Positions 46,991 to 63,180 of a DNA stretch of 64,000 nucleotides are shown piece after piece. A program made the position numbers and the translations under genes. Position 1 is the stretch's first letter; each line of letters starts with the position of its first letter. Source of the stretch: Microbacterium sp. oral taxon 186 str. F0373 (GTDB lineage Bacteria; Actinomycetota; Actinomycetes; Actinomycetales; Microbacteriaceae); assembly GCF_000411455.1 (NCBI RefSeq), contig NZ_KE150457.1, positions 1,824,023 to 1,888,022 of the forward strand, written 5' to 3'. The notes beneath the pieces are model-generated. The model worked only from the letters and a program-made list of their open reading frames with translations, was not told the origin of the DNA and made no database searches.

Positions 46991-47062
46991 GCCTCTGTAG
47001 CTCAGTGGAAGAGCCACTCCGTCCTAAGGAGCGGGTCGGGGGTTCGAATCCCTCCAGGGGCA
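46991..47062 (+). tRNA. tRNA-Arg (anticodon CCT)
   Basis: A full cloverleaf folds: acceptor GCCTCTG with CAGGGGC, D arm with AGCTCAGTGG, anticodon stem CTCC/GGAG with loop GTCCTAA (anticodon CCT), and T arm with GGTTCGAATCC. The 3' CCA is not encoded. It lies 13 bp after the acyltransferase stop. A leftward integrase 200 bp away suggests its 3' end is the attachment site of the island that follows. No second copy of the tRNA end appears before 64000, so the far end of the island lies beyond the window. Confidence 0.93.
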
Positions 47063-47262
47063 CCGCTTGTTTTTGCTCCTGACCAGGTATTTCTTCCGTG
47101 GTCAGACCTCGCAGAATCGCGTTTTGCCCGCTTTTTGCCCGCATTTGTAGGCGCTGTGAATGGAAACAGGGCCCGGCAGAGCGCTCCATCCGGCGTCCCC
47201 GAACGATAAACTGGCGCGTTTCGTGCGGCGTAGAGTTCGATGAGAATTGAGCAATCTGCTCT

Positions 47263-48351
47263 CTACAGTCGGGTCGGCAACACGTATCGCGTTTGCGGAC
47301 CTGCTGGCAGCGCCACGAGCGGCATCTGGGCGTTGAGGCGTGCCGCGACGGCATCCAGATCGTCGTCGAAGAGGTCGGCGTAGGTGTCGAGCGTCATCGC
47401 CGCCGAGGCATGCCCGAGCATCCGCTGCACGGCCTTCAAGTTGGCGCCCGAGCTGATCGCGAGTGACGCGGCCGTGTGGCGGAGATCGTGCGGTGTCAGC
47501 CGCGGGATCGACGGGTCGACTGTCTGTGCGCGCTGCACCGCGTTCGCGAACCAGTCCTGACTGCCGGACCTGCGCATGTGGTGGATGTCGGCGCCGAAGT
47601 ACAGCCGTTCTGCGCCCTTGCCGGCCCACGCCTGCTCCATCATCGGGGCAAGACGCTCCGGGTAGGGGCCGAGCGCTTCTTGTGCGTCGTTGGTGTACCG
47701 ACGTGGATCTCGTAGCCGACTAAGACCGCGTTCCTCTTCGATGACCGAGAGTCGACGCAGTCGGTTCACACTGCGCACGCGTAGCGCGGTCGCCTCGCCC
47801 CCGCGCAGGCCGGTGTAGCCGAGCGTCAGCACCATGGTCGGATGCCCCGAGCATGCCGCCAGCGTCGCGACCCGGCCGTGCGAGAGGTAGACGCGTCGCT
47901 TGCCCGGCCCTTTCCGAAGCAGGGTGCGGATGTTGCGGGCCGGATTGCGGGCGAGGCGACGGTCGTCGATGGCGACATCGAGGATGCCGGCGAGAACGCC
48001 GAGGGCACGGATGACGACGGTGCTCGACTTGCGCGTCGCGAAGTCGGACACCCAGTCCTGAACCTCGGAGCGCCGGATCGAGTGGATCTCCCGATCTCCC
48101 CAGACGGGGGCGACGTGGTTCTTCCACGCCCGCTCGAGCGTCATGTAGTACGAGGGCTTCGACATCGGCGGCTGCTTGGAGCGCAGCCAGCTGTCGGCGA
48201 ACATCCGGACCGGTACTCGGGACGACGTGGGGGCGATGTACTCGCCCTTCGACTTCGACACCGTGACCATCGAGAGGTAGAGCTGCGCCTCGCGGATCGT
48301 CGTGAAGCACCGCTTCTCCGCCTCGGTGTGGTCAGGCTTGCGATAACGCAC
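47263..48351 (-). CDS. int: Tyrosine recombinase (integrase), N-terminally interrupted by a stop codon
   Basis: An integrase frame with the SAM-like N-terminal domain and a catalytic domain: Arg in TLGYTGLRGGEATALR, His-x-x-Arg in LTPHDLRHTAASL, His in RMLGHASAAMTL and the nucleophile in DTYADLF. The original start is almost certainly ATG 48399 (MGSITP). Codon 7 is TAG at 48379-48381, where relatives have Tyr (MGSITPYESAKG). The frame then continues ESAKGRRYRVRYRKPDH. Translation could restart at GTG 48351, which gives 362 residues with all catalytic residues. The integrase thus may be crippled or expressed at a low level. It lies 200 bp from the tRNA. Confidence 0.85.
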   Translation of the reverse strand: MRYRKPDHTEAEKRCFTTIREAQLYLSMVTVSKSKGEYIAPTSSRVPVRMFADSWLRSKQPPMSKPSYYMTLERAWKNHVAPVWGDREIHSIRRSEVQDWVSDFATRKSSTVVIRALGVLAGILDVAIDDRRLARNPARNIRTLLRKGPGKRRVYLSHGRVATLAACSGHPTMVLTLGYTGLRGGEATALRVRSVNRLRRLSVIEEERGLSRLRDPRRYTNDAQEALGPYPERLAPMMEQAWAGKGAERLYFGADIHHMRRSGSQDWFANAVQRAQTVDPSIPRLTPHDLRHTAASLAISSGANLKAVQRMLGHASAAMTLDTYADLFDDDLDAVAARLNAQMPLVALPAGPQTRYVLPTRL

Positions 48352-49027
48352 GCGGTAGCGGCGGCCTTTCGCCGACTCCTATGGGGTGATGCTGCCCATC
48401 TCGACCTCCGATCTTGGCGCGTGATGATCAGTATCGGGACAGTTTTGGACATAGCTTCGGTGCCGTCAACCGACAGCGAACGATGTGCGTCGTGATGCAG
48501 CCGAATGATGGCAAACGTCCCGCGCTACCCACAACGCGCTACGCGGCGGGCGGCGTACATCGATACGCTCAGCTCATGGAGCCCACGACGCCGGCAACGC
48601 TGGCCTTGGATTACGGGGTTCCCCAGAAGCGCATTCGGGACATTCTTCGCTCGCTCTATGGCACTCTGCCTGACGATCGCACACGATGGGTACTTGATGA
48701 CCTTCAGACGGAGGAAGTGCGGTCGCGGCTAAGCGCCGGCGAAGGTCCGCGTGAGTGGGCGCTCGAGATCGGTGACAAGGTCCTCAGGCGCGCCATTCAT
48801 CGTCAGTATGGCGGGGGGCAGCAGGGCGGCATCTCGACGTCGAGCAAGACCAACGACATCTTCATCTTCACGAACCCGGCTCGCGGCTCACGGTACGGAT
48901 ACGACCTCCACGAAGGCCTACAGGCCGACGGCAGCTTTGCCTATACAGGGGAGGGGCAGTCGGGGGATCAAGAGTTCACACGTGGCAATAAGGCGCTCCT
49001 CAACGCTGCCGACGAGGGTCGCGTGAT

Positions 49028-50451
49028 AGTAGTGCCCCTTAAGGTGGTGTAGCCCACGGTGGCCGGCTCGTCGTTCACGACGTAGGCGCGGTCACCGTGT
49101 GATCCTTCGAGGAAACTCTCACATCCCACTCGAAAGGCATCATCACGATGACCGCACTTCATATTGTCGACCCTGCGAGCGTGCTCGCTGAAGCCTTGAC
49201 CGACGCGTCGCCGGATCTGATGCGCAGCCTGCTGCAGACCACGATCAACGCGCTCCTCTCCGCTGACGCGGATGCCGTCGTGGGCGCGGAATGGGGAAAG
49301 CCCAGTCCCGACCGGACCGCGCAACGCAACGGTTACCGGCACCGCGACCTCGACACCCGTGTCGGGACGATCGACGTAGCGATCCCGAAGCTCCGCCAGG
49401 GCACGTACTTCCCGGAATGGCTGCTTGAGCGCCGCAAGCGGGCCGAGACCGCGCTGATCACCGTCGTCGCGGATTGCTATCTCGCCGGCGTCTCGACCCG
49501 CCGGATGGACAAGCTCGTGAAGACCCTCGGGATCCATAGCTTGTCGAAGTCTCAGGTCTCACGGATGGCCGCAGACCTCGACGAGCACGTCGACCAGTTC
49601 CGGCACCGCCCCCTGGGTGACGCGGGGCCGTTCACGTTCGTCGCCGCCGACGCCCTCACGATGAAGGTCCGTGAGGGCGGGCGGGTGATCAACGCGGTCG
49701 TGCTCGTCGCGACCGGCGTCAACGGCGACGGGCACCGGGAAGTCCTCGGCCTCCGGGTCGCGACCAGCGAGACGGGGGCCGCCTGGAACTCGTTCTTCGC
49801 TGACCTGGTCGCCCGCGGTCTCGGCGGGGTCCGCCTCGTCACCAGCGACGCCCATGCCGGGCTCGTGGACGCGATCGCGGCGAACCTGCCCGGCGCGGTC
49901 TGGCAACGCTGCAGAACCCACTACGCAGCGAACCTGATGAGTGTCTGCCCGAAGAGCATGTGGCCGGCCGTTAAGGCGATGCTGCACTCCGTCTACGACC
50001 AACCCGACGCCGACGCCGTCAACGCGCAGTTCGACAGGCTCCTGGACTACGTCGAGGAGAAGCTCCCCGACGCGTTCGAGCACCTCGACAACGCCCGCGC
50101 GGACATCCTCGCGTTCACGGGGTTCCCCGACGGGCTCTGGCAGCAGATCTGGTCCAATAACCCCAACGAGCGGTTGAACAGGGAGATCCGCCGCCGCACC
50201 GACTCCGTGGGCATCTTCCCCAACCGCGACGCGATCATCCGCCTCGTCGGCGCCGTCCTCGCCGAGCAAACCGACGAATGGGTCGAAGGCCGCCGCTACC
50301 TTGGCCTCGAGATCCTCACCAAGAGCCGCCTCGCCCTCGTCCCCGACACCGGAAGCGAGGTGAACACCGACACCGTCCTCGAACTCAGCGCCTAACCGAA
50401 AACAACAGCAGAAGGATCACCGACCGCTACACCACGTACTGGGGCTTGACC
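49028..50451 (+). mobile_element. IS256-family insertion sequence, copy 1 (1424 bp)
   Basis: The element starts AGTAGTGCCCCTTAAGGTGG and ends CACGTACTGGGGCTTGACC. Its ends form imperfect inverted repeats (17 of 25 positions match). It is flanked by perfect 8-bp direct repeats CGCGTGAT at 49020-49027 and 50452-50459, as is typical for IS256. An identical-length copy in the opposite orientation is at 61757-63180. Confidence 0.93.
49148..50395 (+). CDS. IS256-family (mutator type) transposase
   Basis: A 415-residue DDE transposase: the first Asp in [11 protein letters not shown], the second in [10 protein letters not shown] and the Glu in [16 protein letters not shown], with the HTH region near the N-terminus ([18 protein letters not shown]). 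It moves the IS by a copy-paste mechanism with a circular intermediate in this family. The protein is the same, residue for residue as far as I can compare, as that at 61813-63060, so both copies are recent. The frame is intact and the element is probably active. Confidence 0.95.
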
Positions 50452-51092
50452 CGCGTGATCCGGGTCTTCAACGCGAAACCCCCTTACGCTACCTACGTCG
50501 GAGCGTTCACCACAGGGGAGCCCGTATGCACCTTCCAGGAGATTCCGGGTCAGGACGGACTGCTGCGACGCGCCATCGTCTTCAATCTGGTCCCGCTCGA
50601 TGCGAGCACGTCTCTCCTGTCTCCGCATCCTGGGCGACTTCGCATGCTCAAGCCCCAGATTGTGCGATGGGACCCGCCCGATGCTTCGGACATCAGCGTG
50701 GTAGTGGATGCCACCGAGCTACCACCCGGCGATCGGGTGGTCTCACGCGTCGAGTTCCAACTCCAGGCAGACTTCGGTCACTGGTTGGAGGAGCGTGGAA
50801 CGCCGCCGAGCCGTCTCCGTCTGCCAGTAGCCGGCACGATCATCGAGCCCGACATGTATGTAGAGTCCGAGGGTTGGCTTGTGGAGGCCAAGAAGTCGAC
50901 GGGGCGTGAGTATGTCCGGATGGCCATCGGGCAGGTGCTCGACTATGTCCACAACGCGCGCACGCTCGACACCGTGACGACTCCGATGATCCTGCTGCCT
51001 GGGCGCGCGGAGGTCGATCTCATGGAGCTGTCGGCCGATCTCGGCATCACGCTCGCCACACGCGATGGTGACTCGTTCGAGCTGCTGCGGCC

Positions 51093-51491
51093 TTAGCCTG
51101 CAGAGACGATCGCGCGAACCGCAGGGATGTCTGCGGGCGCCCATTCGATGGTGTCCAGCTCTGTAGGTTTTAGCCACCGGACCTCGGAGTGTTCGGTAAC
51201 GCGAGGGGCGCCGGACCGAAGCACACACCAGAAGGTTGTGAGTGTGACGTCCCCGAAGTCGTAGGCGTGGGTGGTGGTGGTGAGCTCGTCACCGACTTCA
51301 ACCTCGCAGTCGAGCTCTTCACGAATCTCACGTTCGACTGCTTGGCGTGCTGATTCGCCGGGCTCGATCTTGCCACCGGGGAACTCCCAGAGGCCGGGTA
51401 GGAGCGATTGAAGCCCGCGCTGCGCGCAAAGCACTAATCCGTCGCGGACGATGACGGCGCCGACAACCTTGACGTTTCTCCGAACGGGCAC
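51093..51491 (-). CDS. NUDIX hydrolase, MutT-like (deoxy)nucleoside triphosphate pyrophosphohydrolase
   Basis: A 132-residue NUDIX protein with the complete box G-x5-E-x7-REUxEE (GKIEPGESARQAVEREIREEL) preceded by GAVIVRDGLVLCAQR and GLWEFPGG, as in MutT-type (d)NTP pyrophosphohydrolases. It would hydrolyse oxidised nucleotides or other nucleoside triphosphates. The GTG at 51491 is chosen; an upstream extension is nonconserved. The stop overlaps the end of the split nuclease gene by 4 bp. It lies 157 bp downstream of the UvrD-like gene on the same strand. NUDIX proteins do occur in defence islands, but participation here is only inferred from position. Confidence 0.85.
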   Translation of the reverse strand: MPVRRNVKVVGAVIVRDGLVLCAQRGLQSLLPGLWEFPGGKIEPGESARQAVEREIREELDCEVEVGDELTTTTHAYDFGDVTLTTFWCVLRSGAPRVTEHSEVRWLKPTELDTIEWAPADIPAVRAIVSAG

Positions 51492-51648
51492 CCGTTCATC
51501 ATGCCTGCTGGGGCAACAGTGATGACGACATCGGGCTGATGTCGATGGATCGCATCTGAAGGCAGTATTCACCGACGCGACCTAACTCTCGCTGGCGCTC
51601 CCGCTGGTCGCAGCCGTGTTGTTCGGCCGGAATGACCGCAACTGCTGG

Positions 51649-54474
51649 CTACTCCGCGGGAGCTCCGGTTGTCAGCCACGCCAGGTCGTTGTACGCCGTG
51701 TCATTCGAGTGATCATGCCCGCACTCGAACTGGTCTGCGCGGATGTTAGCGGCGACCGTCTCGATCTTCGCGCGGATCGCAACAAGGAGCTCAGCGTCGA
51801 CGGCCTCATTCAGGTGGTCACCCTTCTCGTCGAGGTTGAGCACCTGGATCCGATCCGCTGACTCTCCCGTCAACTCGTGGTATCCGAGCGCGTAGACACT
51901 GAGCTGATCACGGGTCGTCGCGATCTTCTGCGCGTCTTCCGTGGATTTGAAGTCGACGATCGACACTTCGTCCGTCTCGAGCCTCTTAATGAGGTCCACC
52001 CGGCCGTCAACGGTGACGCCCGGAGCGACCACCACCTCGATCTGCTTCTCTGAGTGCACGGTGCGGGTGAGATCCTCCCCATGGTCATCGAAGTAGTTGT
52101 TCAACGCCTTCACGGCCGCCCGACGCAACTGGTCGCGCAGCGCCGGGTATGCGTACGGCGTGTGGAGGTGGCGGTCGACGAGATCCGCGGCTTCCGCCTT
52201 GATGGGCACGTCTCCGGCAAGTGCACGCTTGTGCATCTCGGCGAGCGCGTCGTGCAGACCCTTGCCGTAGCCGAGCGCCTCATGGATGGGCGGGTTGAAC
52301 CCGTACATGAACCGCAACTTGAACTGGTACGGGCATTCCAACAGGTACTTCAGCTCGGAGAACGAGATGGCAATCGCCGGAGTCTCCGTCTTCGGCACCG
52401 GCGTGAGACGTTCCACCGTCGGCAGACCTGGGTCGGCCGTCAATACCCAGTCGGAGCCGGACGCATCTCGGAAGAAGTCAGACTGGCGTCGTGCTTGCTG
52501 GTTGGACGCGATGGGTGCCCAGGACATGTAGAGGTACTTCTGCGCGCGAGTGACGGCGACGTAGAACAGCCGGGTCTCCTCCGACAACCCGCCTCGATAT
52601 CGAGGACCGTTTGGGACTGCCTCGATCGGCACGACGTGGAAAACGTTCAGGCCACCGCTCGCGCGAATGGGGAAGCGGTTCTTTCGCAGGCAGGGCACGA
52701 ACACGACGGGCCACTGCATGCCTTTCGCCCGATGGACAGTCGTGATCGTGACCGCGTCAGGGGTCGCGAATCCAGCGTCCTCGTCCGCCTCCTCGTAGTA
52801 CGCCGGTGCCTGTCGATCATCTGTGATGAACCGGACGAATCCCTCGTACTTGCGCTGCGGGTCGGACGCGAAGTTGATCGCTTCGAAGTCCGAGATCACC
52901 TGTGAGAACTTCCCGAGCTGGTACATCACCAACTCCGCTCGCGCAGGCGTGCCGGGGATCGTCGCTTCGCGGACATCCATCGCTTCGAGCACGTCCAGGT
53001 AGAGACGCTGCACGTTGTATGTGCCCCACCGGTCGCCACGACTGAAGTCAGAGCCTTCCTCGAGAATCCGGACGCCGCGTGCCAACAGTTCGGGTGAAGC
53101 AAGAATATCGGCCTGGTCGAACAGGCTCCTCAGCGCGGCTTCATCGATTTCACCGACCATGAACTGGAACATTCCAACGAGCGCCTCGATCTCCGGCGCA
53201 TCGAACAGCCGCGCGAGCCCCTTGATGATGTACGGGACGCCGCGGCGCCGGAACTCGTCAACCAGAGGTTCGGCATCTTTGACGGTGCGGTAAAGCACCG
53301 CGCAGTCCGACCACGACAGTCCCCTCGGCGCCGCATCAGGTACATCGGTGAAAGGCATCCCCCGCAGCGCTTCGACGCGATCCACGATCCATACGGCTTC
53401 TTCATGGGGATCCGCGAACTCGAGTGCGAGCATGTCGCCGCGCTCCCAGACCTGGTGCGAGGCGTACTCCATCGCCTTCGGGAGTCGCTCGTCCGGTGGG
53501 AGCCATTCGGCGATGGTCCGGCCGAGACGGACGACGCCCTTCGACGAACGGAAGTTGTCGGCGAGCTCAATCGTGCGGACGTCGTCGTGCCGGTTGGCGA
53601 ACGTGAGGATGTTGGAGACTTCGGAGCCGCGCCACTGGTAGATCGTCTGATCATCGTCACCGACGACACAGAGGTTGGCGCCCCACCGAATGAGGCCGGC
53701 GATCAGCTTCTCTTGCAGCGGGTTCACGTCCTGGTACTCGTCCACGACGACGTACTTGATGTCCTCGCGAATGTGCCGGAGCAGCTCCAGCTCTGGTGTG
53801 GTGAGGTCGGGATCATCCGGATCTGACTCGAGGAAGGCGACCGCGGTGGCAATCATCGCCGTGTAGTCGAAGTACTTCCGACGCGACAGAAGGTCGGCAT
53901 ACGAATGCAGGCTGTTGGCGACCCCGTCAGGCACGAGATCGAAGTCGACCTCGTCCTCCTGGAGGATTGAAAGCACCTGCATGTACAGCTTCGAGTCGGC
54001 GTACCGCCAGAGCGTCGGTCGGCTGGGGGCGGTCGTGGGACATGTCGTGAGCCCCGACTTCGTCGATTCGCGGTCAATCAGCAGACGCTGCGTGATGTCC
54101 GTGAGAACTCCATACTTGAACGCTTCGGGCACGTAGGTCTGCAGCAGGTTCAGAGCGAACCCGTGCATCGTGCCGACGTACATCTCTGCTAGCCCTGTCA
54201 GCTCGCCGTGTTCGTCGTGAACGATGCGGTGGATACGCTCCTTCAGCTCAGCAGCGGCCTTCTCAGTGAAGGTGAATGCGATCACGTTTCCAGGACGCGC
54301 ACCCGGAAGCCCGAGGATCCGCGAAATTCGCTGCGAGATCACCTGTGTCTTCCCTGAGCCCGCGCACGCGATGAGCTGGAGCGGCGCGGTGAGCTCATCG
54401 ATGGCGGCTTGCTGCGCCGGTGTGTAGGTAGTCATCATCGGGAGGCTACCGTCGACCAGCGACATGCTCGCCAT
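51649..54474 (-). CDS. UvrD-like helicase with C-terminal PD-(D/E)XK nuclease
   Basis: A 941-residue superfamily 1 helicase: Walker A GSGKT at 39-43, DEYQD at 245-249, GDDDQTIYQWRGS near 268, TVHRAKGMQWPVVF near 565 and VAVTRAQKYLYMSW near 640. The last 200 residues contain a RecB/Cas4-like nuclease core (DGRVDLI with Asp827, then Asp841-Phe-Lys843 in IVDFKST). This is the AddA/RecB-style helicase-nuclease plan. It lies 15 bp after mod and so is the third gene of the res-mod-uvrD operon. The start may be ATG 54474 or, less likely, 54438/54435. It may degrade DNA that the Res/Mod pair cuts or marks. Confidence 0.9.
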   Translation of the reverse strand: MASMSLVDGSLPMMTTYTPAQQAAIDELTAPLQLIACAGSGKTQVISQRISRILGLPGARPGNVIAFTFTEKAAAELKERIHRIVHDEHGELTGLAEMYVGTMHGFALNLLQTYVPEAFKYGVLTDITQRLLIDRESTKSGLTTCPTTAPSRPTLWRYADSKLYMQVLSILQEDEVDFDLVPDGVANSLHSYADLLSRRKYFDYTAMIATAVAFLESDPDDPDLTTPELELLRHIREDIKYVVVDEYQDVNPLQEKLIAGLIRWGANLCVVGDDDQTIYQWRGSEVSNILTFANRHDDVRTIELADNFRSSKGVVRLGRTIAEWLPPDERLPKAMEYASHQVWERGDMLALEFADPHEEAVWIVDRVEALRGMPFTDVPDAAPRGLSWSDCAVLYRTVKDAEPLVDEFRRRGVPYIIKGLARLFDAPEIEALVGMFQFMVGEIDEAALRSLFDQADILASPELLARGVRILEEGSDFSRGDRWGTYNVQRLYLDVLEAMDVREATIPGTPARAELVMYQLGKFSQVISDFEAINFASDPQRKYEGFVRFITDDRQAPAYYEEADEDAGFATPDAVTITTVHRAKGMQWPVVFVPCLRKNRFPIRASGGLNVFHVVPIEAVPNGPRYRGGLSEETRLFYVAVTRAQKYLYMSWAPIASNQQARRQSDFFRDASGSDWVLTADPGLPTVERLTPVPKTETPAIAISFSELKYLLECPYQFKLRFMYGFNPPIHEALGYGKGLHDALAEMHKRALAGDVPIKAEAADLVDRHLHTPYAYPALRDQLRRAAVKALNNYFDDHGEDLTRTVHSEKQIEVVVAPGVTVDGRVDLIKRLETDEVSIVDFKSTEDAQKIATTRDQLSVYALGYHELTGESADRIQVLNLDEKGDHLNEAVDAELLVAIRAKIETVAANIRADQFECGHDHSNDTAYNDLAWLTTGAPAE

Positions 54475-54489
54475 CTACCACGGTCAAGG

Positions 54490-57069
54490 TCACGCCACCT
54501 CGATGATCTTCATGACTTCGTCGCCGTAGTCGTTGATCACCTTTACAGCGATCTTGCCTGTGGAGGGTGTGTCGAACGGCACCGAGACCGGGCGGTTTAG
54601 TGTCGCCCATGCGTCCGGATCGATATCGGCCTTGAGCGCAGTCTTGAGCGCCTTGTAGGGGTCGTTCTCGCCGAGGAAATATGCGTGGCGCACGAAGAAG
54701 CTCTCCCCGTCGTAGTTGGTGTCGATCATCCACAGCGCGATCTCCTTGATGGAGTTGGAACGCACTTCGCCGGACGTCGGGTCGTAGACATCGATCCCGC
54801 GCACTTCGATCTCCCACTGCGCCCCTGCCTCGCGCAAGTCGAGGTCAGGTTCGCCGAAGACAGTGAACAGGTTTCCCTTGCCCGTCTTCTTGAGTTCATT
54901 GCCCATGAGCAGGTCAACATTCATTCGAACCACCAGCACCTTGACACGCCCCAGGTCTCGGACGCCAGCGACAACTGCGAAACCCTGTTCATCGGTCTCA
55001 ACACCAAGTTGCGGATCGAAGGCGAATCCAAGCACAGCGACAAGCGGTGCGCCGGCTTCAACTGCTTCTCGCGCCGCACTCTTGATGAACGACGCTGAGA
55101 CTGTTCCGTACTGTGGCCCTAGCGCGATGGCTAGCTGATCGCCTGACTCTTTCTGGGTGCCGATTGCCTGCACATAGGCGCCAGGGTGTGCATCGATCGA
55201 CGCAAACACGAGGCGCTCAGCGCGGCGGCCGTTCTGTATGCCCGCGACACGGAGATCCGCGAGTATTGATTGCTCGAAGGAGGGAGTTTCTGCCTCCACT
55301 GCTCCAGGGCGCAGATCATCCGCTTCATCTAGCGCGATGTTTCGATGCGGCGCGAGAGACTCAACTGTGAATGGTCCTGCGACACGCACGCGGCCAGGAT
55401 CAATTTGGGGGGAATCGAACAGCGTCACCGATTCTGCGGCGGAGCTGATAGCAGCATCAGCCTCTTTGAGCGTCATCCCCTCGACGATCGACTCATTGTT
55501 CGCGATCGATCCCAACGTGATCCGAGGGAAACTCTCATATATGAATCCGCCCGCCGGGCTTGTAACTCCGGCTTCCAGCTTGTAGTAGCTAAAACGCGCT
55601 CCCATCAACCGTTGTCGGGCAAGCGCAATTGCCACTCTGGACGTGTCAATCGTGATCCATCGTCTGCCCCACTGCTCAGCGACAGCGGCCGTCGTGCCTG
55701 AACCACACGTCGGGTCCAGTACCAGATCGCCAGGATCGGTACACATGAGCATGCACCGACCGACTACCTTCGTCGTGGTCTGAACGACGTAGATCTTCTC
55801 GTCGGTGAAGCCCCCGATTACCGTGTCGCTCCACACGTTGTTGTAGGTCTGCCAGCCAGAGTCAGTCGGGTACCGCACGTACTCGAGCGACGAACCTGCG
55901 TTGTGAATGCGGTGCGCCCAGGCGAGGCGCTGCATCCCGACTGGATTGCTGGCCTTCCAATGAAGGCTGGCGCCGGGGAGGTAACTCTTTCCGCCATAGG
56001 AGAACTGTTGATCCTGCTTCGACGCGCCCTGCGATCGCAAGTTGTCATTGCGATAGATGCGCGCACCCTCGGGCAACACGCTGGGGTCCAGCTTTTCAGC
56101 CTTGGTTGCCGGGCGCCTTGTGCCGTCACCCAGCATCACCCAGTTGTAGCCGCTTTGGCTGGCACCCTTCGACCAAAGGGTTCGTACCTTTAGTTTCGTA
56201 ACGTCGCGTCCGTACCACAGGATCATGTCGCCCGCGCGACTGAGACCTGTCGTAGCGACAAATCCACTTGTCGTGGCAAAGAAGATCTGGCTAACGAAGT
56301 TTTCCGCACCGAAGACCTCGTCCAGAAGGCTACGTACAAGATGCACGTTCTCGTCACCGATCTGGACGAACACACTGCCACTCGCAGTGAGCAGATCCCG
56401 CGCGGCCACGAGACGATCGCGCAGATAGGCCAGGTATGAGTGGATGCCCAACTCCCATGTATCGCGGAACGCCTTGATCTGCTCTGCCTCGCGCGCCGCG
56501 TCGTCGATCTTGCCGTCCTTGACGTCCCGCTTTGATGCTCGCGTCTGCCAGTTCGAACCGAACTTGATTCCGTAGGGCGGGTCGATGTAGATCATCTGCA
56601 CCTTTCCGCGGAGAGCCTCGCGCTCGGCGAGCGAACCCATGACCTGGAGGCTGTCACCAATGATCATCCGGTTCTTCCACGACTCCTCGTGCTGATAGAA
56701 CTCAACCGCGCTGAGCTCATCCAGCTCATCGAAGTCGTCGAAGTCGAACAGGCTTGGGATCTGGTTGAACTCGTTCGACTTCGACTGCTTCTTTAGGTTC
56801 TCAATGAGGGCCTGCGGGGCGATTTTCTCCTGGATGTAGATGGGCGGAGCATCGACGACGAGGTCTCCGTCGTTCTGAGCATCCTTTCCTCTCCAGACGA
56901 GTTGTGGGTCGAGGTCGACGTTCCGCGGGTACCGTAGTGGCGGCAGCGCTTCTTTAGATTCGTCGTAGAAGGTTGCCGCGGCATCCGCTGTCGGGATATT
57001 CGACCTCTTATCGTCGTGGTCATACGCGGTGACCTGGGTCGGGCCTTTGGGCTGGCGGGGGCGGGCCAT
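54490..57069 (-). CDS. Type III-like DNA adenine methyltransferase Mod, extended
   Basis: An 859-residue methyltransferase. The N-terminus has MIIGDSLQVM then motif IV DPPYGIKFG at 163-171, and motif I DPTCGSGTTAAVAEQW at 452-467. Motif IV precedes motif I, so it is a beta-class enzyme like type III Mod, which methylates adenine-N6 and reads the target sequence. The region between the two motifs is the recognition domain. The C-terminal 370 residues are additional; ordinary type III Mod proteins are around 600-700 residues. The ATG at 57069 shares its A with the res stop (TGATG). It probably protects the host and may guide the Res protein. Confidence 0.88.
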   Translation of the reverse strand: MARPRQPKGPTQVTAYDHDDKRSNIPTADAAATFYDESKEALPPLRYPRNVDLDPQLVWRGKDAQNDGDLVVDAPPIYIQEKIAPQALIENLKKQSKSNEFNQIPSLFDFDDFDELDELSAVEFYQHEESWKNRMIIGDSLQVMGSLAEREALRGKVQMIYIDPPYGIKFGSNWQTRASKRDVKDGKIDDAAREAEQIKAFRDTWELGIHSYLAYLRDRLVAARDLLTASGSVFVQIGDENVHLVRSLLDEVFGAENFVSQIFFATTSGFVATTGLSRAGDMILWYGRDVTKLKVRTLWSKGASQSGYNWVMLGDGTRRPATKAEKLDPSVLPEGARIYRNDNLRSQGASKQDQQFSYGGKSYLPGASLHWKASNPVGMQRLAWAHRIHNAGSSLEYVRYPTDSGWQTYNNVWSDTVIGGFTDEKIYVVQTTTKVVGRCMLMCTDPGDLVLDPTCGSGTTAAVAEQWGRRWITIDTSRVAIALARQRLMGARFSYYKLEAGVTSPAGGFIYESFPRITLGSIANNESIVEGMTLKEADAAISSAAESVTLFDSPQIDPGRVRVAGPFTVESLAPHRNIALDEADDLRPGAVEAETPSFEQSILADLRVAGIQNGRRAERLVFASIDAHPGAYVQAIGTQKESGDQLAIALGPQYGTVSASFIKSAAREAVEAGAPLVAVLGFAFDPQLGVETDEQGFAVVAGVRDLGRVKVLVVRMNVDLLMGNELKKTGKGNLFTVFGEPDLDLREAGAQWEIEVRGIDVYDPTSGEVRSNSIKEIALWMIDTNYDGESFFVRHAYFLGENDPYKALKTALKADIDPDAWATLNRPVSVPFDTPSTGKIAVKVINDYGDEVMKIIEVA

Positions 57070-60000
57070 CAGACTCCCTCGAAAATGAAGCGGGACAAGA
57101 GGTCGGGGTCACCGACGATTGGGCGATCGGCGATGTGGTCGGCAATCGCCTGGCGGAGCACGTGCTCCGCATCGTCGACGCCGGCCTTGCCGAGTTCTAG
57201 GTAGCCCCAGCGCCCGAATGCGCCGTGGTTGTTGACCGCGGTGCACCACAGATTGCGCGCAGTGTCAGCTTTCGCCTTGGTCGAGCCGGGGCTCTTCTGG
57301 CTGCCGGAGACCTCGACGATGAGCGTGCGGGTGAAATCCTCTCCGTCCACGGGTGCGAGTCGGAGCAGAAAGTCGGGCAGATAGCGGTGACTGCGGCCCT
57401 GGTGGACGTAGGGGACTTCGAAGCCGAGGTGGTCGTTCTTCACGTAGCTCGTCAGCATCCCGTCGCGGGCTAGCGTCTCGCAGACCTGCGCGACGCGCTT
57501 CTCCCACGTGTTACCGTCCTTGCCATCGAGGGTGACGTGCGAGACATGCGAGAGCGTGGTCTCGAAGGTCATCTTGCGGGTGTCGAACCAGACTGCGGCA
57601 GTGCTGTGGGTGTGCTCGCCGAATGCGAGGATCGGCCTCATCAGTGGTCGACGCTGAGTGTCGTCCAGGCGCGCGATCGCATGCCCGATGGCCTGCGCCG
57701 CGAGCTCTTGCGGCTCGGCGAGAGTCAGGAATCCGATCGTGTAGCCAGACTCGACGTGCACCTTGTGTCGCAGCCAATCGCGGGCGAACTCGACAAGTTG
57801 CGGGAACAGCCACGGCCGATGATCATCTGCGTCAGGGAACAGCCAACGAAGCGTGCGCTTCGCAATACCGAAGGCGACCTCCTGCTCGCGCGCTTCCTTG
57901 ATCCCATCAATGCGCTCGATCTGTCCGACGATGCCGGCCGCCTCTACCCAACTGGGGACGGTGTTCCCGTTGATCACCACGCCATCAGCCGCATCGAGGT
58001 CAAAGATCAGGGGAGCATCCGGCAGCTCGACCCGGTACCCGGAGAGCACCGGGAAGTCGATCTGTAGGTGGGCTCGGTCTTCCATCGCCTGCACGCGGAT
58101 GCTCGGCTCAGGAGGCTTCGGCGGGTCGACCGGCTTGTCACTCGGGATGAACGAGAACGGGATGCCATACACGTTGGCGTACTCCGGCGGGAACAGCCCA
58201 GTATCCGGGTCGGCCGCATAGGACCGGCGACGCAGTCCGCGGCCGACGACCTGCTCGCACAGCAGTTGCGAGCCGAACGCGCGGACGCCCAGGATATGGG
58301 TGACGGTGTTGGCATCCCAGCCCTCGGTGAGCATCGCCACGGAGACGACGCACCGGACCTGCTCGCCGAGCTTTCCCTTTTTTCCGACGGTGTTCATCAC
58401 CTCGCGAAGCAGGTCGGAATCATCTAGCTTGTCGACATCCGCCCCGGGGTTCGACTTGCGATATGCCTGCTTGAACGCGTCAATCTCCTCAGCTGCGGCT
58501 TTCTTGAAGTCATCCTTCATTGCCTCACCAGATTCGAGCTGCTTCGAATCGATGACGATCGTGCGCGGGATGGCGACGGGCTGGTCGTTCTCGACGTTTG
58601 TGAACAGTGGGAGATTGCCCTTGACGTGCCGGGTGTGCTCGCCGTCCGCTACTTCGTAGCCGGCGATCCAGTCGTAGACGAGCTTCGAGACGAGCGTGTT
58701 CGGTGTAACGACGATCATCACCGGGGGCGGCTCCTCCAGCGGCTTGAGCCGTTCTTCCCAGTCCTCATATGCGGCTTCGTAGGACTTGTAGAGAGATCGG
58801 ATGCCGCCCTCCAGCACGGCTGGCATGTTCCAGGTGCCGGGGGCGGGCATTGCGGACAGCGCGACTCGCTTCGGCCAGGACGGATCATCCTTCACCTGGT
58901 CGTAGAGGTGAAGGTAGGTGACGAGGTCAGCCTGCGCACTGTCGTCGACGGGCAGCCGAGGCACCTTCACAATGCCGGACTCGATTGCATCCATCAGGCC
59001 GAAGTCGCTGACAACCCACGGGAAGATCGAGCCTTCGCCGTAGCCGCTGCCCTTCAGATAGAAGGGTGTTGCGGACAGGTCGTAGATCGTCTTGATCCCT
59101 TCCTTGCCCTTGTTGCCGTAGCGGCGGATGTCGACGAGGCCCTTGAACCAGACGCGAGCGTCATCGTTCGCTTCCTTCGTGTCGGCGTCGAGCTTCTCGT
59201 CGAGGTCCTTCGGCTGGTAGCAGTGGTGTGCCTCGTCGTTGAATACGACGATCTCGCCCTTATCGCGGCCGAGCTTATCGAGCACGCGTGTGACCACCAT
59301 CTGCGGCGTCTCGGTAAACGCGCCTTGGTCTGGCTTGCCTGCCAGCAGCAGCTTGCGCGTGTTGGCGCTGATGCCCTTCCCGGCGCTTGTGGTCCGAGCC
59401 ATGAACTGGTGGTAGTTGATGATGTGGACGTCTGCCTGATTGAGCTGGGCGCGTAGATCTTGGGGCACGACTCCCCGCAGATCGAAGTAGTTCACGTCGC
59501 GCGGCTCAGTAGGTTGAAGTACCCGCAGGCGATCCTTGATCGTGATGCCGGGGGCGACGATCAGGAACCGCTTCACGAACCGCGAGTCCTGCGGCGAGTT
59601 CACCTTGTTCAGCGTGTGCCAGGCGATGAGCATCGCCATCACGATCGTCTTTCCGGCACCGGTCGCCATCTTGAGTGCGACGCGTGGGAGGTTGGCGTTG
59701 TGCTCGGAGTTGGCGTCCGCAAGAGTGTTCCGCCAGTCGATGCCGGCCAGGTTCGAACGGTCGTACTTGTCGCGTCCCACGACCTCAGCGAGGTAGATCG
59801 CGGTCTCGGCCGCTTCACGCTGAGCGAAGAGGATCGGGTCTTCGCGGCTGGGGTCTGACCAGTGCATCAGCAGCTTGCGGCTGACGGCAGTCGCGCCCGG
59901 GTAGTTCTGGCGCCGCCAGTCACGGAGTGCGTCACGGAGTTGGTCAATCTTGTGGTTGCGCTCGACTCGCTCGTCCGTGAGGTTCGAGAAGTCCAGGGTG

Positions 60001-60191
60001 GGCTGCGGTGCAGTCTTCGCCCTTCCTGCGCCGCGCTTCGGCTTCGGGATGGGGATGAAGAACTCGCTAAGGCGCCGCTTCTCGATGACGTTGCCCGTAG
60101 GGCCACTCGGGCCCATCTCGAAGTGCCGCCCGGGTTCTTCGTACGCAGAGTTGAGCACGGGATTGGACAGCGCATCGCTGACGTCGGACAC
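57069..60191 (-). CDS. Type III-like restriction subunit Res (DEAH helicase with nuclease)
   Basis: A 1040-residue superfamily 2 protein: Walker A ATGAGKT at about 176-182, DEAH at 319-322 (FNDEAHHCYQ), IYDLSATPFYLKGSG, and the helicase C motif VVGRGLRRRSY. The C-terminus carries a PD-(D/E)XK-like fold (Asp940 in LPDFLLRL, Glu960 in LIVEVSGSQK), where Ser replaces the usual Lys two residues after Glu. Res subunits need Mod for recognition and translocate or slide on DNA to cut. The GTG at 60191 has GGGGAGGG just upstream and is preferred over longer starts at 60218 and 60239. It is the first gene of the operon. Confidence 0.88.
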   Translation of the reverse strand: MSDVSDALSNPVLNSAYEEPGRHFEMGPSGPTGNVIEKRRLSEFFIPIPKPKRGAGRAKTAPQPTLDFSNLTDERVERNHKIDQLRDALRDWRRQNYPGATAVSRKLLMHWSDPSREDPILFAQREAAETAIYLAEVVGRDKYDRSNLAGIDWRNTLADANSEHNANLPRVALKMATGAGKTIVMAMLIAWHTLNKVNSPQDSRFVKRFLIVAPGITIKDRLRVLQPTEPRDVNYFDLRGVVPQDLRAQLNQADVHIINYHQFMARTTSAGKGISANTRKLLLAGKPDQGAFTETPQMVVTRVLDKLGRDKGEIVVFNDEAHHCYQPKDLDEKLDADTKEANDDARVWFKGLVDIRRYGNKGKEGIKTIYDLSATPFYLKGSGYGEGSIFPWVVSDFGLMDAIESGIVKVPRLPVDDSAQADLVTYLHLYDQVKDDPSWPKRVALSAMPAPGTWNMPAVLEGGIRSLYKSYEAAYEDWEERLKPLEEPPPVMIVVTPNTLVSKLVYDWIAGYEVADGEHTRHVKGNLPLFTNVENDQPVAIPRTIVIDSKQLESGEAMKDDFKKAAAEEIDAFKQAYRKSNPGADVDKLDDSDLLREVMNTVGKKGKLGEQVRCVVSVAMLTEGWDANTVTHILGVRAFGSQLLCEQVVGRGLRRRSYAADPDTGLFPPEYANVYGIPFSFIPSDKPVDPPKPPEPSIRVQAMEDRAHLQIDFPVLSGYRVELPDAPLIFDLDAADGVVINGNTVPSWVEAAGIVGQIERIDGIKEAREQEVAFGIAKRTLRWLFPDADDHRPWLFPQLVEFARDWLRHKVHVESGYTIGFLTLAEPQELAAQAIGHAIARLDDTQRRPLMRPILAFGEHTHSTAAVWFDTRKMTFETTLSHVSHVTLDGKDGNTWEKRVAQVCETLARDGMLTSYVKNDHLGFEVPYVHQGRSHRYLPDFLLRLAPVDGEDFTRTLIVEVSGSQKSPGSTKAKADTARNLWCTAVNNHGAFGRWGYLELGKAGVDDAEHVLRQAIADHIADRPIVGDPDLLSRFIFEGV

Positions 60192-60499
60192 TGAACCCTC
60201 CCCAGGTACCGGCGTCATGGAGCAACGCCGCGATTCCATATTGTCAGAGCTCCTTGGTCCGCGAGGTGCAACCCGCCTCTCGTGAACGCCAAGCAAGCCA
60301 CCAAGGGACCCGAGTACGACATACCAGGACCTCAACTCGGGAGAACCATGTTGAGAAGAAGCCAGGAGAACACAACGAGGAGAACGATGCACGCAGGCAT
60401 CAATGATGGCCGGCTACCTCTTTCGTCAATCCGCCACAGTTGCCTGCATCCGAGAAAAATACCTGGATAGACGGTAAATCACGATTCTATCCTGGCGGC
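60192..60499. other. Gene-free region upstream of the res-mod-uvrD operon
   Basis: No convincing gene is seen in these 308 bp. Short frames (for example a 62-codon one at 60282-60470) lack ribosome-binding sites and family features. The stretch must hold the promoter of the leftward operon. Candidate elements near 60245-60270 (TTGCAC and GACAAT read leftward) are weak. The base composition is less GC-rich than the flanks, as expected for an acquired region. Confidence 0.4.
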
Positions 60500-61756: not shown

Positions 61757-63180
61757 GGTCAAGCCCCAGTACGTGGTGTAGCGGTCGGTGATCCTTCTGC
61801 TGTTGTTTTCGGTTAGGCGCTGAGTTCGAGGACGGTGTCGGTGTTCACCTCGCTTCCGGTGTCGGGGACGAGGGCGAGGCGGCTCTTGGTGAGGATCTCG
61901 AGGCCAAGGTAGCGGCGGCCTTCGACCCATTCGTCGGTTTGCTCGGCGAGGACGGCGCCGACGAGGCGGATGATCGCGTCGCGGTTGGGGAAGATGCCCA
62001 CGGAGTCGGTGCGGCGGCGGATCTCCCTGTTCAACCGCTCGTTGGGGTTATTGGACCAGATCTGCTGCCAGAGCCCGTCGGGGAACCCCGTGAACGCGAG
62101 GATGTCCGCGCGGGCGTTGTCGAGGTGCTCGAACGCGTCGGGGAGCTTCTCCTCGACGTAGTCCAGGAGCCTGTCGAACTGCGCGTTGACGGCGTCGGCG
62201 TCGGGTTGGTCGTAGACGGAGTGCAGCATCGCCTTAACGGCCGGCCACATGCTCTTCGGGCAGACACTCATCAGGTTCGCTGCGTAGTGGGTTCTGCAGC
62301 GTTGCCAGACCGCGCCGGGCAGGTTCGCCGCGATCGCGTCCACGAGCCCGGCATGGGCGTCGCTGGTGACGAGGCGGACCCCGCCGAGACCGCGGGCGAC
62401 CAGGTCAGCGAAGAACGAGTTCCAGGCGGCCCCCGTCTCGCTGGTCGCGACCCGGAGGCCGAGGACTTCCCGGTGCCCGTCGCCGTTGACGCCGGTCGCG
62501 ACGAGCACGACCGCGTTGATCACCCGCCCGCCCTCACGGACCTTCATCGTGAGGGCGTCGGCGGCGACGAACGTGAACGGCCCCGCGTCACCCAGGGGGC
62601 GGTGCCGGAACTGGTCGACGTGCTCGTCGAGGTCTGCGGCCATCCGTGAGACCTGAGACTTCGACAAGCTATGGATCCCGAGGGTCTTCACGAGCTTGTC
62701 CATCCGGCGGGTCGAGACGCCGGCGAGATAGCAATCCGCGACGACGGTGATCAGCGCGGTCTCGGCCCGCTTGCGGCGCTCAAGCAGCCATTCCGGGAAG
62801 TACGTGCCCTGGCGGAGCTTCGGGATCGCTACGTCGATCGTCCCGACACGGGTGTCGAGGTCGCGGTGCCGGTAACCGTTGCGTTGCGCGGTCCGGTCGG
62901 GACTGGGCTTTCCCCATTCCGCGCCCACGACGGCATCCGCGTCAGCGGAGAGGAGCGCGTTGATCGTGGTCTGCAGCAGGCTGCGCATCAGATCCGGCGA
63001 CGCGTCGGTCAAGGCTTCAGCGAGCACGCTCGCAGGGTCGACAATATGAAGTGCGGTCATCGTGATGATGCCTTTCGAGTGGGATGTGAGAGTTTCCTCG
63101 AAGGATCACACGGTGACCGCGCCTACGTCGTGAACGACGAGCCGGCCACCGTGGGCTACACCACCTTAAGGGGCACTACT
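61757..63180 (-). mobile_element. IS256-family insertion sequence, copy 2 (1424 bp)
   Basis: This is the same element as 49028-50451 with the same ends and length, in the opposite orientation. It is flanked by perfect 8-bp repeats CCAGCCGC at 61749-61756 and 63181-63188. Removing the element and one repeat restores the IS481 reading frame (AAG CGG CTG GGG). Confidence 0.93.
61813..63060 (-). CDS. IS256-family transposase, copy 2
   Basis: A 415-residue transposase with the same DDE residues as the copy at 49148-50395 ([34 protein letters not shown]); the two protein sequences appear identical. The upstream 120 bp to the element end is also identical. It is intact and probably active. Confidence 0.95.

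What the first reader, a model, noticed from the sequence alone, without database searches (positions are those of the whole stretch)
51649..60191. Three-gene operon res-mod-uvrD/PD-(D/E)XK: candidate extended type III restriction or new defence system
Res, an unusually long Mod (859 residues, about 370 beyond motif I) and an AddA/RecB-like UvrD helicase-nuclease form one leftward operon (TGATG overlap, then a 15-bp gap). Canonical type III systems contain only mod and res. The third gene adds a second motor with its own nuclease core (Asp827, Asp841-x-Lys843). Res itself has Ser in place of the usual Lys in its nuclease motif (EVSGSQK), so the UvrD protein might supply cutting or degradation. 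It sits in an island with another restriction gene and a NUDIX gene.
Basis: partly seen in the sequence, partly recalled or inferred. Interest (0 to 1): 0.75.

Follow-up and report, generated by a model that had tools for sequence, protein, structure and literature searches.

The report
Three-gene type III restriction operon
This bacterium carries three tightly packed genes: the two genes of a predicted type III restriction system, which would cut unmarked foreign DNA, followed by a gene for a UvrD-family helicase fused to a nuclease domain that likely helps destroy such DNA; related gene pairs elsewhere are followed by the same kind of helicase gene, by a different kind, or by none.

Summary
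The operon is real: res (60191-57069), mod (57069-54490), uvrD-PD-(D/E)XK (54474-51649), with the stated TGATG overlap and 15-bp gap. It is a type III-like pair of the NCBIfam BPTD_3080 class plus a UvrD/Cas4-like (PF12705) helicase-nuclease. The link is genuine: in 249 family genomes Res (over cut-off) occurs in 5, the UvrD in 4, both in one cluster in 3; the same UvrD also follows an unrelated type III pair. The association is not new: a 2017 Cas4 survey (PMC5704561) reports that UvrD-Cas4 fusions most often neighbour type III Mod and Res. The long Mod is normal for its class. Ser in the Res nuclease motif belongs to half of the Res tree, and 17 of 27 loci there show no UvrD-family gene, so UvrD is probably not a stand-in for a dead Res. 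Added here: proteobacterial relatives of the same mod-res carry a different third gene, a UvrD helicase with a weakly RelE-like N-terminus (ArmD-like), which suggests repeated recruitment of helicases; and the window's UvrD clade has C-x-HDH in place of the C-terminal cysteine cluster. Best reading, untested: a motor-nuclease that processes DNA after Mod-Res recognition or cutting.

The parts
57069..60191 (-). Res: SF2 helicase with C-terminal PD-(D/E)XK-like region (PDFLL ... EVSGSQK), BPTD_3080 family, 1040 aa from GTG
54490..57069 (-). Mod: beta-class adenine-type DNA methyltransferase (DPPY then DPTCGSGTT) with a long conserved C-terminal part, 859 aa
51649..54474 (-). UvrD-family helicase with C-terminal PD-(D/E)XK (PF12705, RecB/Cas4-like) nuclease domain, 941 aa; third gene
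51093..51572 (-). NUDIX hydrolase gene, same strand, 76 bp after uvrD; PADLOC candidate PDC-S07; one weak match in the other loci examined, so probably cargo
48414..49052 (+). first ORF piece of an IS256-interrupted restriction-like gene; weak PADLOC type IV match (15.8 bits); an intact relative lies convergent to uvrD in L098
50278..51096 (+). second ORF piece of that gene (the ORF start overlaps the IS end); similar to the later part of the L098 gene
49028..50451 (+). IS256-family copy 1 (transposase 49148-50395)
61757..63180 (-). IS256-family copy 2, inverted, 100% over 1424 bases (transposase 61813-63060)

Best explanation
The three closely spaced genes form a predicted type III-like restriction-modification operon in which Mod is predicted to methylate host sites, Mod and Res together are predicted to recognise and cut unmethylated DNA, and the UvrD helicase-nuclease would likely load on the products and unwind and degrade them. 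Shown: three open genes, their motifs, their order, their linkage in other genomes. Inferred from families: adenine methylation, ATP-driven site search, cutting by Res. Inferred and untested: that UvrD acts after Res, in the same pathway, by degrading DNA. The third slot looks like a plug-in for SF1 helicases: UvrD-nuclease in actinobacteria, an ArmD-like UvrD helicase (weakly RelE-like N-terminus) mainly in proteobacteria, neither in the other lineages sampled.
For: Gene junctions. Linkage: Res over cut-off in 5 of 249 family genomes, UvrD (E <= 1e-100) in 4 of 249, both in 3: directly after mod in the window and G068, 2 kb after mod in G127; hypergeometric P 1.6e-5 with and 5.8e-4 without the window's genome (kinship not corrected). 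Same order res-mod-uvrD in Nocardiopsis, Actinomadura and Frankia loci (L003, L008, L010). The 5 genomes with UvrD matches above 700 bits all have them in a type III mod-res cluster (G000, G068, G127, G879 of this class; G235 of another, Mod PADLOC PDLC03645 833 bits). Of 50 assessable loci among the best 80 found with Res, 29 have a UvrD-family gene within 6.5 kb after mod: 3 tandem and 3 convergent UvrD-nuclease type, 23 RelE-like-UvrD type. D827, D841, K843, Q857, Y861 are invariant in 15 rows.
Against: The gene is dispensable: 21 of 50 assessable loci have none; G053, G079 and G870 have open res and mod without it, and so has G660 with a shorter mod ORF; in G879 uvrD is broken while res and mod are open. 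Of 12 distinct genomes with a UvrD match, 5 are not, or cannot be shown to be, beside mod-res (G278, G360, G498, G626, G934). The 2017 authors favoured an ancillary, partly repair-like role. GajB, a UvrD-like defence protein, showed no unwinding in vitro (PMC10681800, abstract). Res resembles characterised type III Res only weakly (EcoP15I E 0.018; PADLOC REase_III at most 22.8 bits). Structure models were poor (pLDDT 61 and 48).
Confidence: 0.55

Rival explanations
1. The Res nuclease is inactive because its ExK lysine is Ser, and the UvrD nuclease domain makes the cut; Mod-Res only recognises and signals.
For: In the 54-row set, all 10 loci with the UvrD-nuclease type have ExS in Res, and all 21 loci with the RelE-like-UvrD type have canonical ExK. 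PF12705 was checked by Pfam in the window, L010 and L039, and its absence in L068 and L075.
Against: The two motif classes are two halves of one tree, so this may be a single change. 17 of 27 ExS/ExT loci show no UvrD-family gene. The PD and Glu residues stay conserved, which a dead domain would not need. PD-(D/E)XK enzymes with a substituted lysine are known to be active (recalled).
Confidence: 0.15
2. UvrD-nuclease is a repair or recombination helper that limits accidental self-damage rather than attacking phage DNA.
For: Homology to PcrA/UvrD, AddA and RecB; the 2017 survey suggests a RecB/AddB-like role partly redundant with repair; frequent absence.
Against: 7 of 12 distinct genomes with a match have it by mod or mod-res, one with an unrelated type III pair; a 33% relative lies beside Dcm, MspI and Vsr genes on a Priestia plasmid.
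Confidence: 0.15
3. The uvrD gene is only a passenger of a mobile defence island.
For: The genes lie between two identical inverted IS256 copies and have lower GC, 61.6% against 71.1%; other neighbours vary between loci.
Against: Same order and tight junctions in distant actinobacteria and linkage beyond chance.
Confidence: 0.1

Closest known systems
UvrD-Cas4 fusions beside type III Mod/Res (PMC5704561, section 8 read)
   Same: UvrD helicase fused to a PF12705 nuclease, beside mod and res
   Different: A genomic prediction in the section read, without a functional test; here the Res class is named (BPTD_3080), and the window clade has C-x-HDH instead of the C-terminal cysteine cluster
EcoP15I-type III restriction-modification
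   Same: EcoP15I Mod is the best Foldseek match of a poor Mod model and the second-best profile match; mod-res pair
   Different: Mod 215 residues longer than the 644-aa EcoP15I chain; Res related only weakly; third gene
ARMADA type II ArmD (PMC12458937, passages read)
   Same: UvrD-family helicase as accessory; proteobacterial relatives of this mod-res carry a helicase of that architecture
   Different: The window's UvrD has no RelE-like N-terminus and has a nuclease domain; no YprA, BrxHII or PglX match among the eight neighbouring proteins annotated
Bad, DNA2-like helicase-nuclease beside a type III-like Mod (PMC7430649, passages read)
   Same: helicase-nuclease beside a type III-like Mod; its authors suggest a novel restriction enzyme
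   Different: DNA2-like layout (nuclease first, SF1B helicase last); here the nuclease is C-terminal on a UvrD helicase
Gabija GajB
   Same: UvrD family (PADLOC 178.7 bits)
   Different: no OLD nuclease gene beside it; has its own nuclease domain

Membership tests
Type III restriction-modification | Mod: beta-class methyltransferase (DPPY before the SAM motif), homologous to type III Mods | tested here: met
Type III restriction-modification | Res: SF2 helicase core encoded beside mod | tested here: met
Type III restriction-modification | Res: catalytic PD-(D/E)XK site | tested here: inconclusive
   PD and E present, Lys replaced by Ser or Thr in the whole clade
Type III restriction-modification | Res clearly homologous to characterised type III Res | tested here: inconclusive
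   EcoP15I Res E 0.018 with a profile; PADLOC REase_III at most 22.8 bits
Type III restriction-modification | ATP-dependent cutting after two-site communication; hemimethylation | not testable with these tools
   needs biochemistry
BPTD_3080 family restriction endonuclease (NF046055) | score above the curated cut-off | tested here: met
   1049.6 against 800 bits
UvrD-Cas4-like fusion of PMC5704561 | UvrD helicase fused to PF12705 nuclease, beside type III mod-res | tested here: met
UvrD-Cas4-like fusion of PMC5704561 | one clade with the published fusions | not tested
   their sequences were not fetched
Iron-staple (Cas4/AddB/DNA2) nuclease | four conserved cysteines, with a cluster near the C-terminus | tested here: not met
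   the 15 aligned rows (window and 14 relatives) end in C-x-HDH; L003, L008, L010, L004, L006, L039, L100 and L101 keep a cysteine cluster there
Gabija | GajA-like OLD nuclease gene beside the UvrD gene | tested here: not met
   neighbours are mod and a NUDIX gene
ARMADA type II | ArmD: RelE-like N-terminus on UvrD | tested here: not met
   the UvrD domain begins at residue 18 of the window protein; the 23 such genes lie in other loci

The most novel reading that the evidence does not exclude
BPTD_3080-class mod-res pairs are the core of a ternary restriction machine whose third slot has been filled independently by different SF1 helicases (UvrD-nuclease in actinobacteria, ArmD-like RelE-UvrD in proteobacteria and at least one cyanobacterium), so that type III recognition is coupled to processive unwinding and destruction of the invader; in the Ser/Thr clade the nuclease-bearing partner has taken over part of the cutting.
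Probability: 0.3. Interest if true: 0.72.

Novelty: new variant of a known kind. Interest (0 to 1): 0.5.

Why it matters
Conventional type III enzymes are described as ATP-dependent DNA sliders without motor activity (passage in PMC7430649). A conserved, repeatedly recruited helicase partner would mean that an uncharacterised class of type III systems couples recognition to processive DNA destruction, linking restriction to Gabija- and ARMADA-like helicase defences. It also tells annotators that a complete system may have three genes and that this Res is barely seen by the PADLOC restriction models.

Tried and rejected
Structure: AlphaFold models of Res (17-row alignment, pLDDT 61) and Mod (13 rows, pLDDT 48) were poor; Foldseek gave no match under E 0.01 for Res (best 0.016) and for Mod only EcoP15I Mod at 3.3e-4. 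The Mod C-terminus (490-859) stays unassigned. A generic UvrD in L005 (128 bits) was not counted. The 'missing lysine means UvrD cuts' idea was tested by tabulating motif against partner and kept only as a rival. Contig-length matching between homologue lists (24 of 41 UvrD hits on contigs of at least 8.5 kb share a contig length with a Mod or Res hit) is only supportive: it used the first 60 of 120 UvrD rows, all 120 Mod rows and the first 67 of 120 Res rows, and equal length is not proof of one contig. Of those 80, 14 had no Mod on the contig, 15 had under 3 kb after mod and no hit, and L023 was lost by ORF selection; positives with under 3 kb were kept (L053, L062, L073), which slightly favours the link. 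Two of the 23 RelE-UvrD genes are short pieces (L065, L071). L074 and L079 (Res in two ORFs) are in the 50 but not in the tree. The RelE-UvrD profile was built from 17 of the genes that it then found. In the genome searches only the best 2-3 first-look candidates per genome were scored. Paper searches listed nothing on this gene order beyond what is cited; only listings were seen there.
Full report
What is there. The three genes are as described: res ends in a TGATG overlap with mod, and uvrD follows mod after 15 bp. Res is best read from the GTG at 60191 (1040 aa). Pfam, NCBIfam and PADLOC give Res (NF046055 restr_BPTD_3080, 1049.6 bits, cut-off 800), Mod (N6_N4_Mtase; PADLOC type III Mod PDLC03632, 814 bits) and UvrD plus PDDEXK_1. 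The helicase, methyltransferase and UvrD-nuclease motifs looked for are in place. Bases 51001-60400 have 61.6% GC against 71.1% in bases 1-47000, and the genes lie between two identical, inverted IS256 copies.

Mod and Res are ordinary for their class. The 120 Mod homologues listed have 799-987 aa, and 13 aligned rows match to the end. In Res, EVSG is invariant in 17 aligned rows. Over 54 loci, the tree splits into 27 with ExK and 27 with ExS or ExT. So Ser is a lineage trait.

Is the third gene linked? In 249 genomes of the family, Res is over cut-off in 5 and UvrD (E <= 1e-100) is found in 4; 3 genomes have both. In the window and G068 uvrD follows mod directly, in G127 after 2 kb. P is 1.6e-5, or 5.8e-4 without the window's genome; kinship is not corrected. 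In 347 genomes of the order: Res 8, UvrD 3, both 2, P 0.0014, or 0.04 without the window's genome. In 396 of the phylum: Res 19, UvrD 7, both 2. The 5 genomes with UvrD matches above 700 bits all have them in a type III mod-res cluster; one of these (G235, L095) is of another class, with its own Mod (PADLOC PDLC03645, 833 bits) and a ResIII protein that no PADLOC model matched at 1e-10. Weaker UvrD matches are mixed: G369 convergent beside mod-res; G468 near a Mod fragment and a sacsin/NOV protein; G626 and G360 on contigs under 5 kb; G278 and G498 without mod-res in the stretch fetched; G934 without this Res. In all, 7 of 12 distinct genomes with a UvrD match have it by mod or mod-res.

Other lineages. 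Of the best 80 genome loci found by Res, 50 could be judged within 6.5 kb after mod: 3 have tandem UvrD-nuclease, 3 convergent UvrD-nuclease, 23 a tandem UvrD helicase of mostly about 690-700 aa with a different N-terminus, and 21 none. That N-terminus matches the RelE-like HigB family weakly in 13 of 14 members (E up to 0.1, best 3.9e-5; the one shown scores 19.9 bits against a gathering score of 27; best PDB match RelE3, E 0.33). This is the architecture described for ArmD of ARMADA II (PMC12458937, passages). Among plasmids, 11 records have a close relative of this gene (45% identity or more) and 10 of them also hold the Res (three are Pseudomonas amygdali plasmids of nearly the same length). 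None of the 12 non-actinobacterial loci in the Ser/Thr clade of the tree shows a UvrD-family gene. In actinobacteria, tree rows plus G870, G879 and G660 give 18 loci: 7 tandem (one broken), 4 convergent, 7 none. The tree needs 12 changes of partner type, against 24.6 on average in shuffles; such counts cannot tell gain from loss.

What is already known. The Cas4 survey of 2017 (PMC5704561, section 8 read) states that UvrD-Cas4 fusions most commonly neighbour type III Mod and Res, and also Dcm and Vsr; the Priestia plasmid relative found here is in the second context. Bad, a DNA2-like helicase-nuclease, lies beside a type III-like Mod (PMC7430649, passages). A search for this Res name found no paper, and searches on UvrD with type III found only the 2017 paper. 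The pairing of RelE-UvrD with mod-res was not seen in the listings and passages looked at, which is no proof that it is unpublished.

What differs here. The window's UvrD clade ends in C-x-HDH instead of the cysteine cluster kept in eight other UvrD-nuclease genes compared, so the iron-sulphur type of nuclease domain is probably altered.

Mechanism. Best reading: Mod marks self, Mod-Res finds and likely cuts unmethylated DNA, and UvrD likely loads on the products and degrades them. The order of action, the interaction and the degradation are inferred. That many loci lack UvrD suggests that it enhances rather than enables restriction.

Verdict. A real, conserved three-gene variant of type III restriction whose core association was already predicted; the interest lies in what looks like repeated recruitment of different helicases to one mod-res class.

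Noticed in passing
48414-49052 and 50278-51096: A restriction-like gene is split by an IS256 copy; an intact 333-aa relative lies convergent beside uvrD in L098 (5423-6421), 38% and 27% identity to the two pieces.
   Followed up: partly
49028-50451 and 61757-63180: Two identical inverted IS256 copies bracket the operon, 11.3 kb apart, as in a composite transposon; target duplications were not established.
   Followed up: partly
51093-51572: NUDIX gene 76 bp after uvrD matches PADLOC candidate PDC-S07 (170 bits); one weak match in the other loci examined.
   Followed up: partly
46991-48351: tRNA-Arg followed by a tyrosine recombinase gene at 47263-48351: possibly the integration site of an island.
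   Followed up: no
L095:3867-11460: The window-type UvrD follows an unrelated type III mod-res pair in G235.
   Followed up: yes
L101:4342-12764: Mod fragment, a 1695-aa sacsin/NO VEIN protein and a UvrD-nuclease in a row: possibly a further system.
   Followed up: no
L016, L017, L032, L050; L058, L063, L065; L012, L032, L051: Recurrent extra genes near res-mod: a Gp37/Gp68-like gene with a second small gene; an ATPase-like with a protease-like gene; an OLD-like ATPase (names recalled, not searched).
   Followed up: no
L107 and L108: Relatives of the RelE-UvrD gene on Thermus and Qipengyuania plasmids sit beside BrxL/RecQ and DUF4011 genes, so this helicase occurs in several defence-like contexts.
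   Followed up: partly
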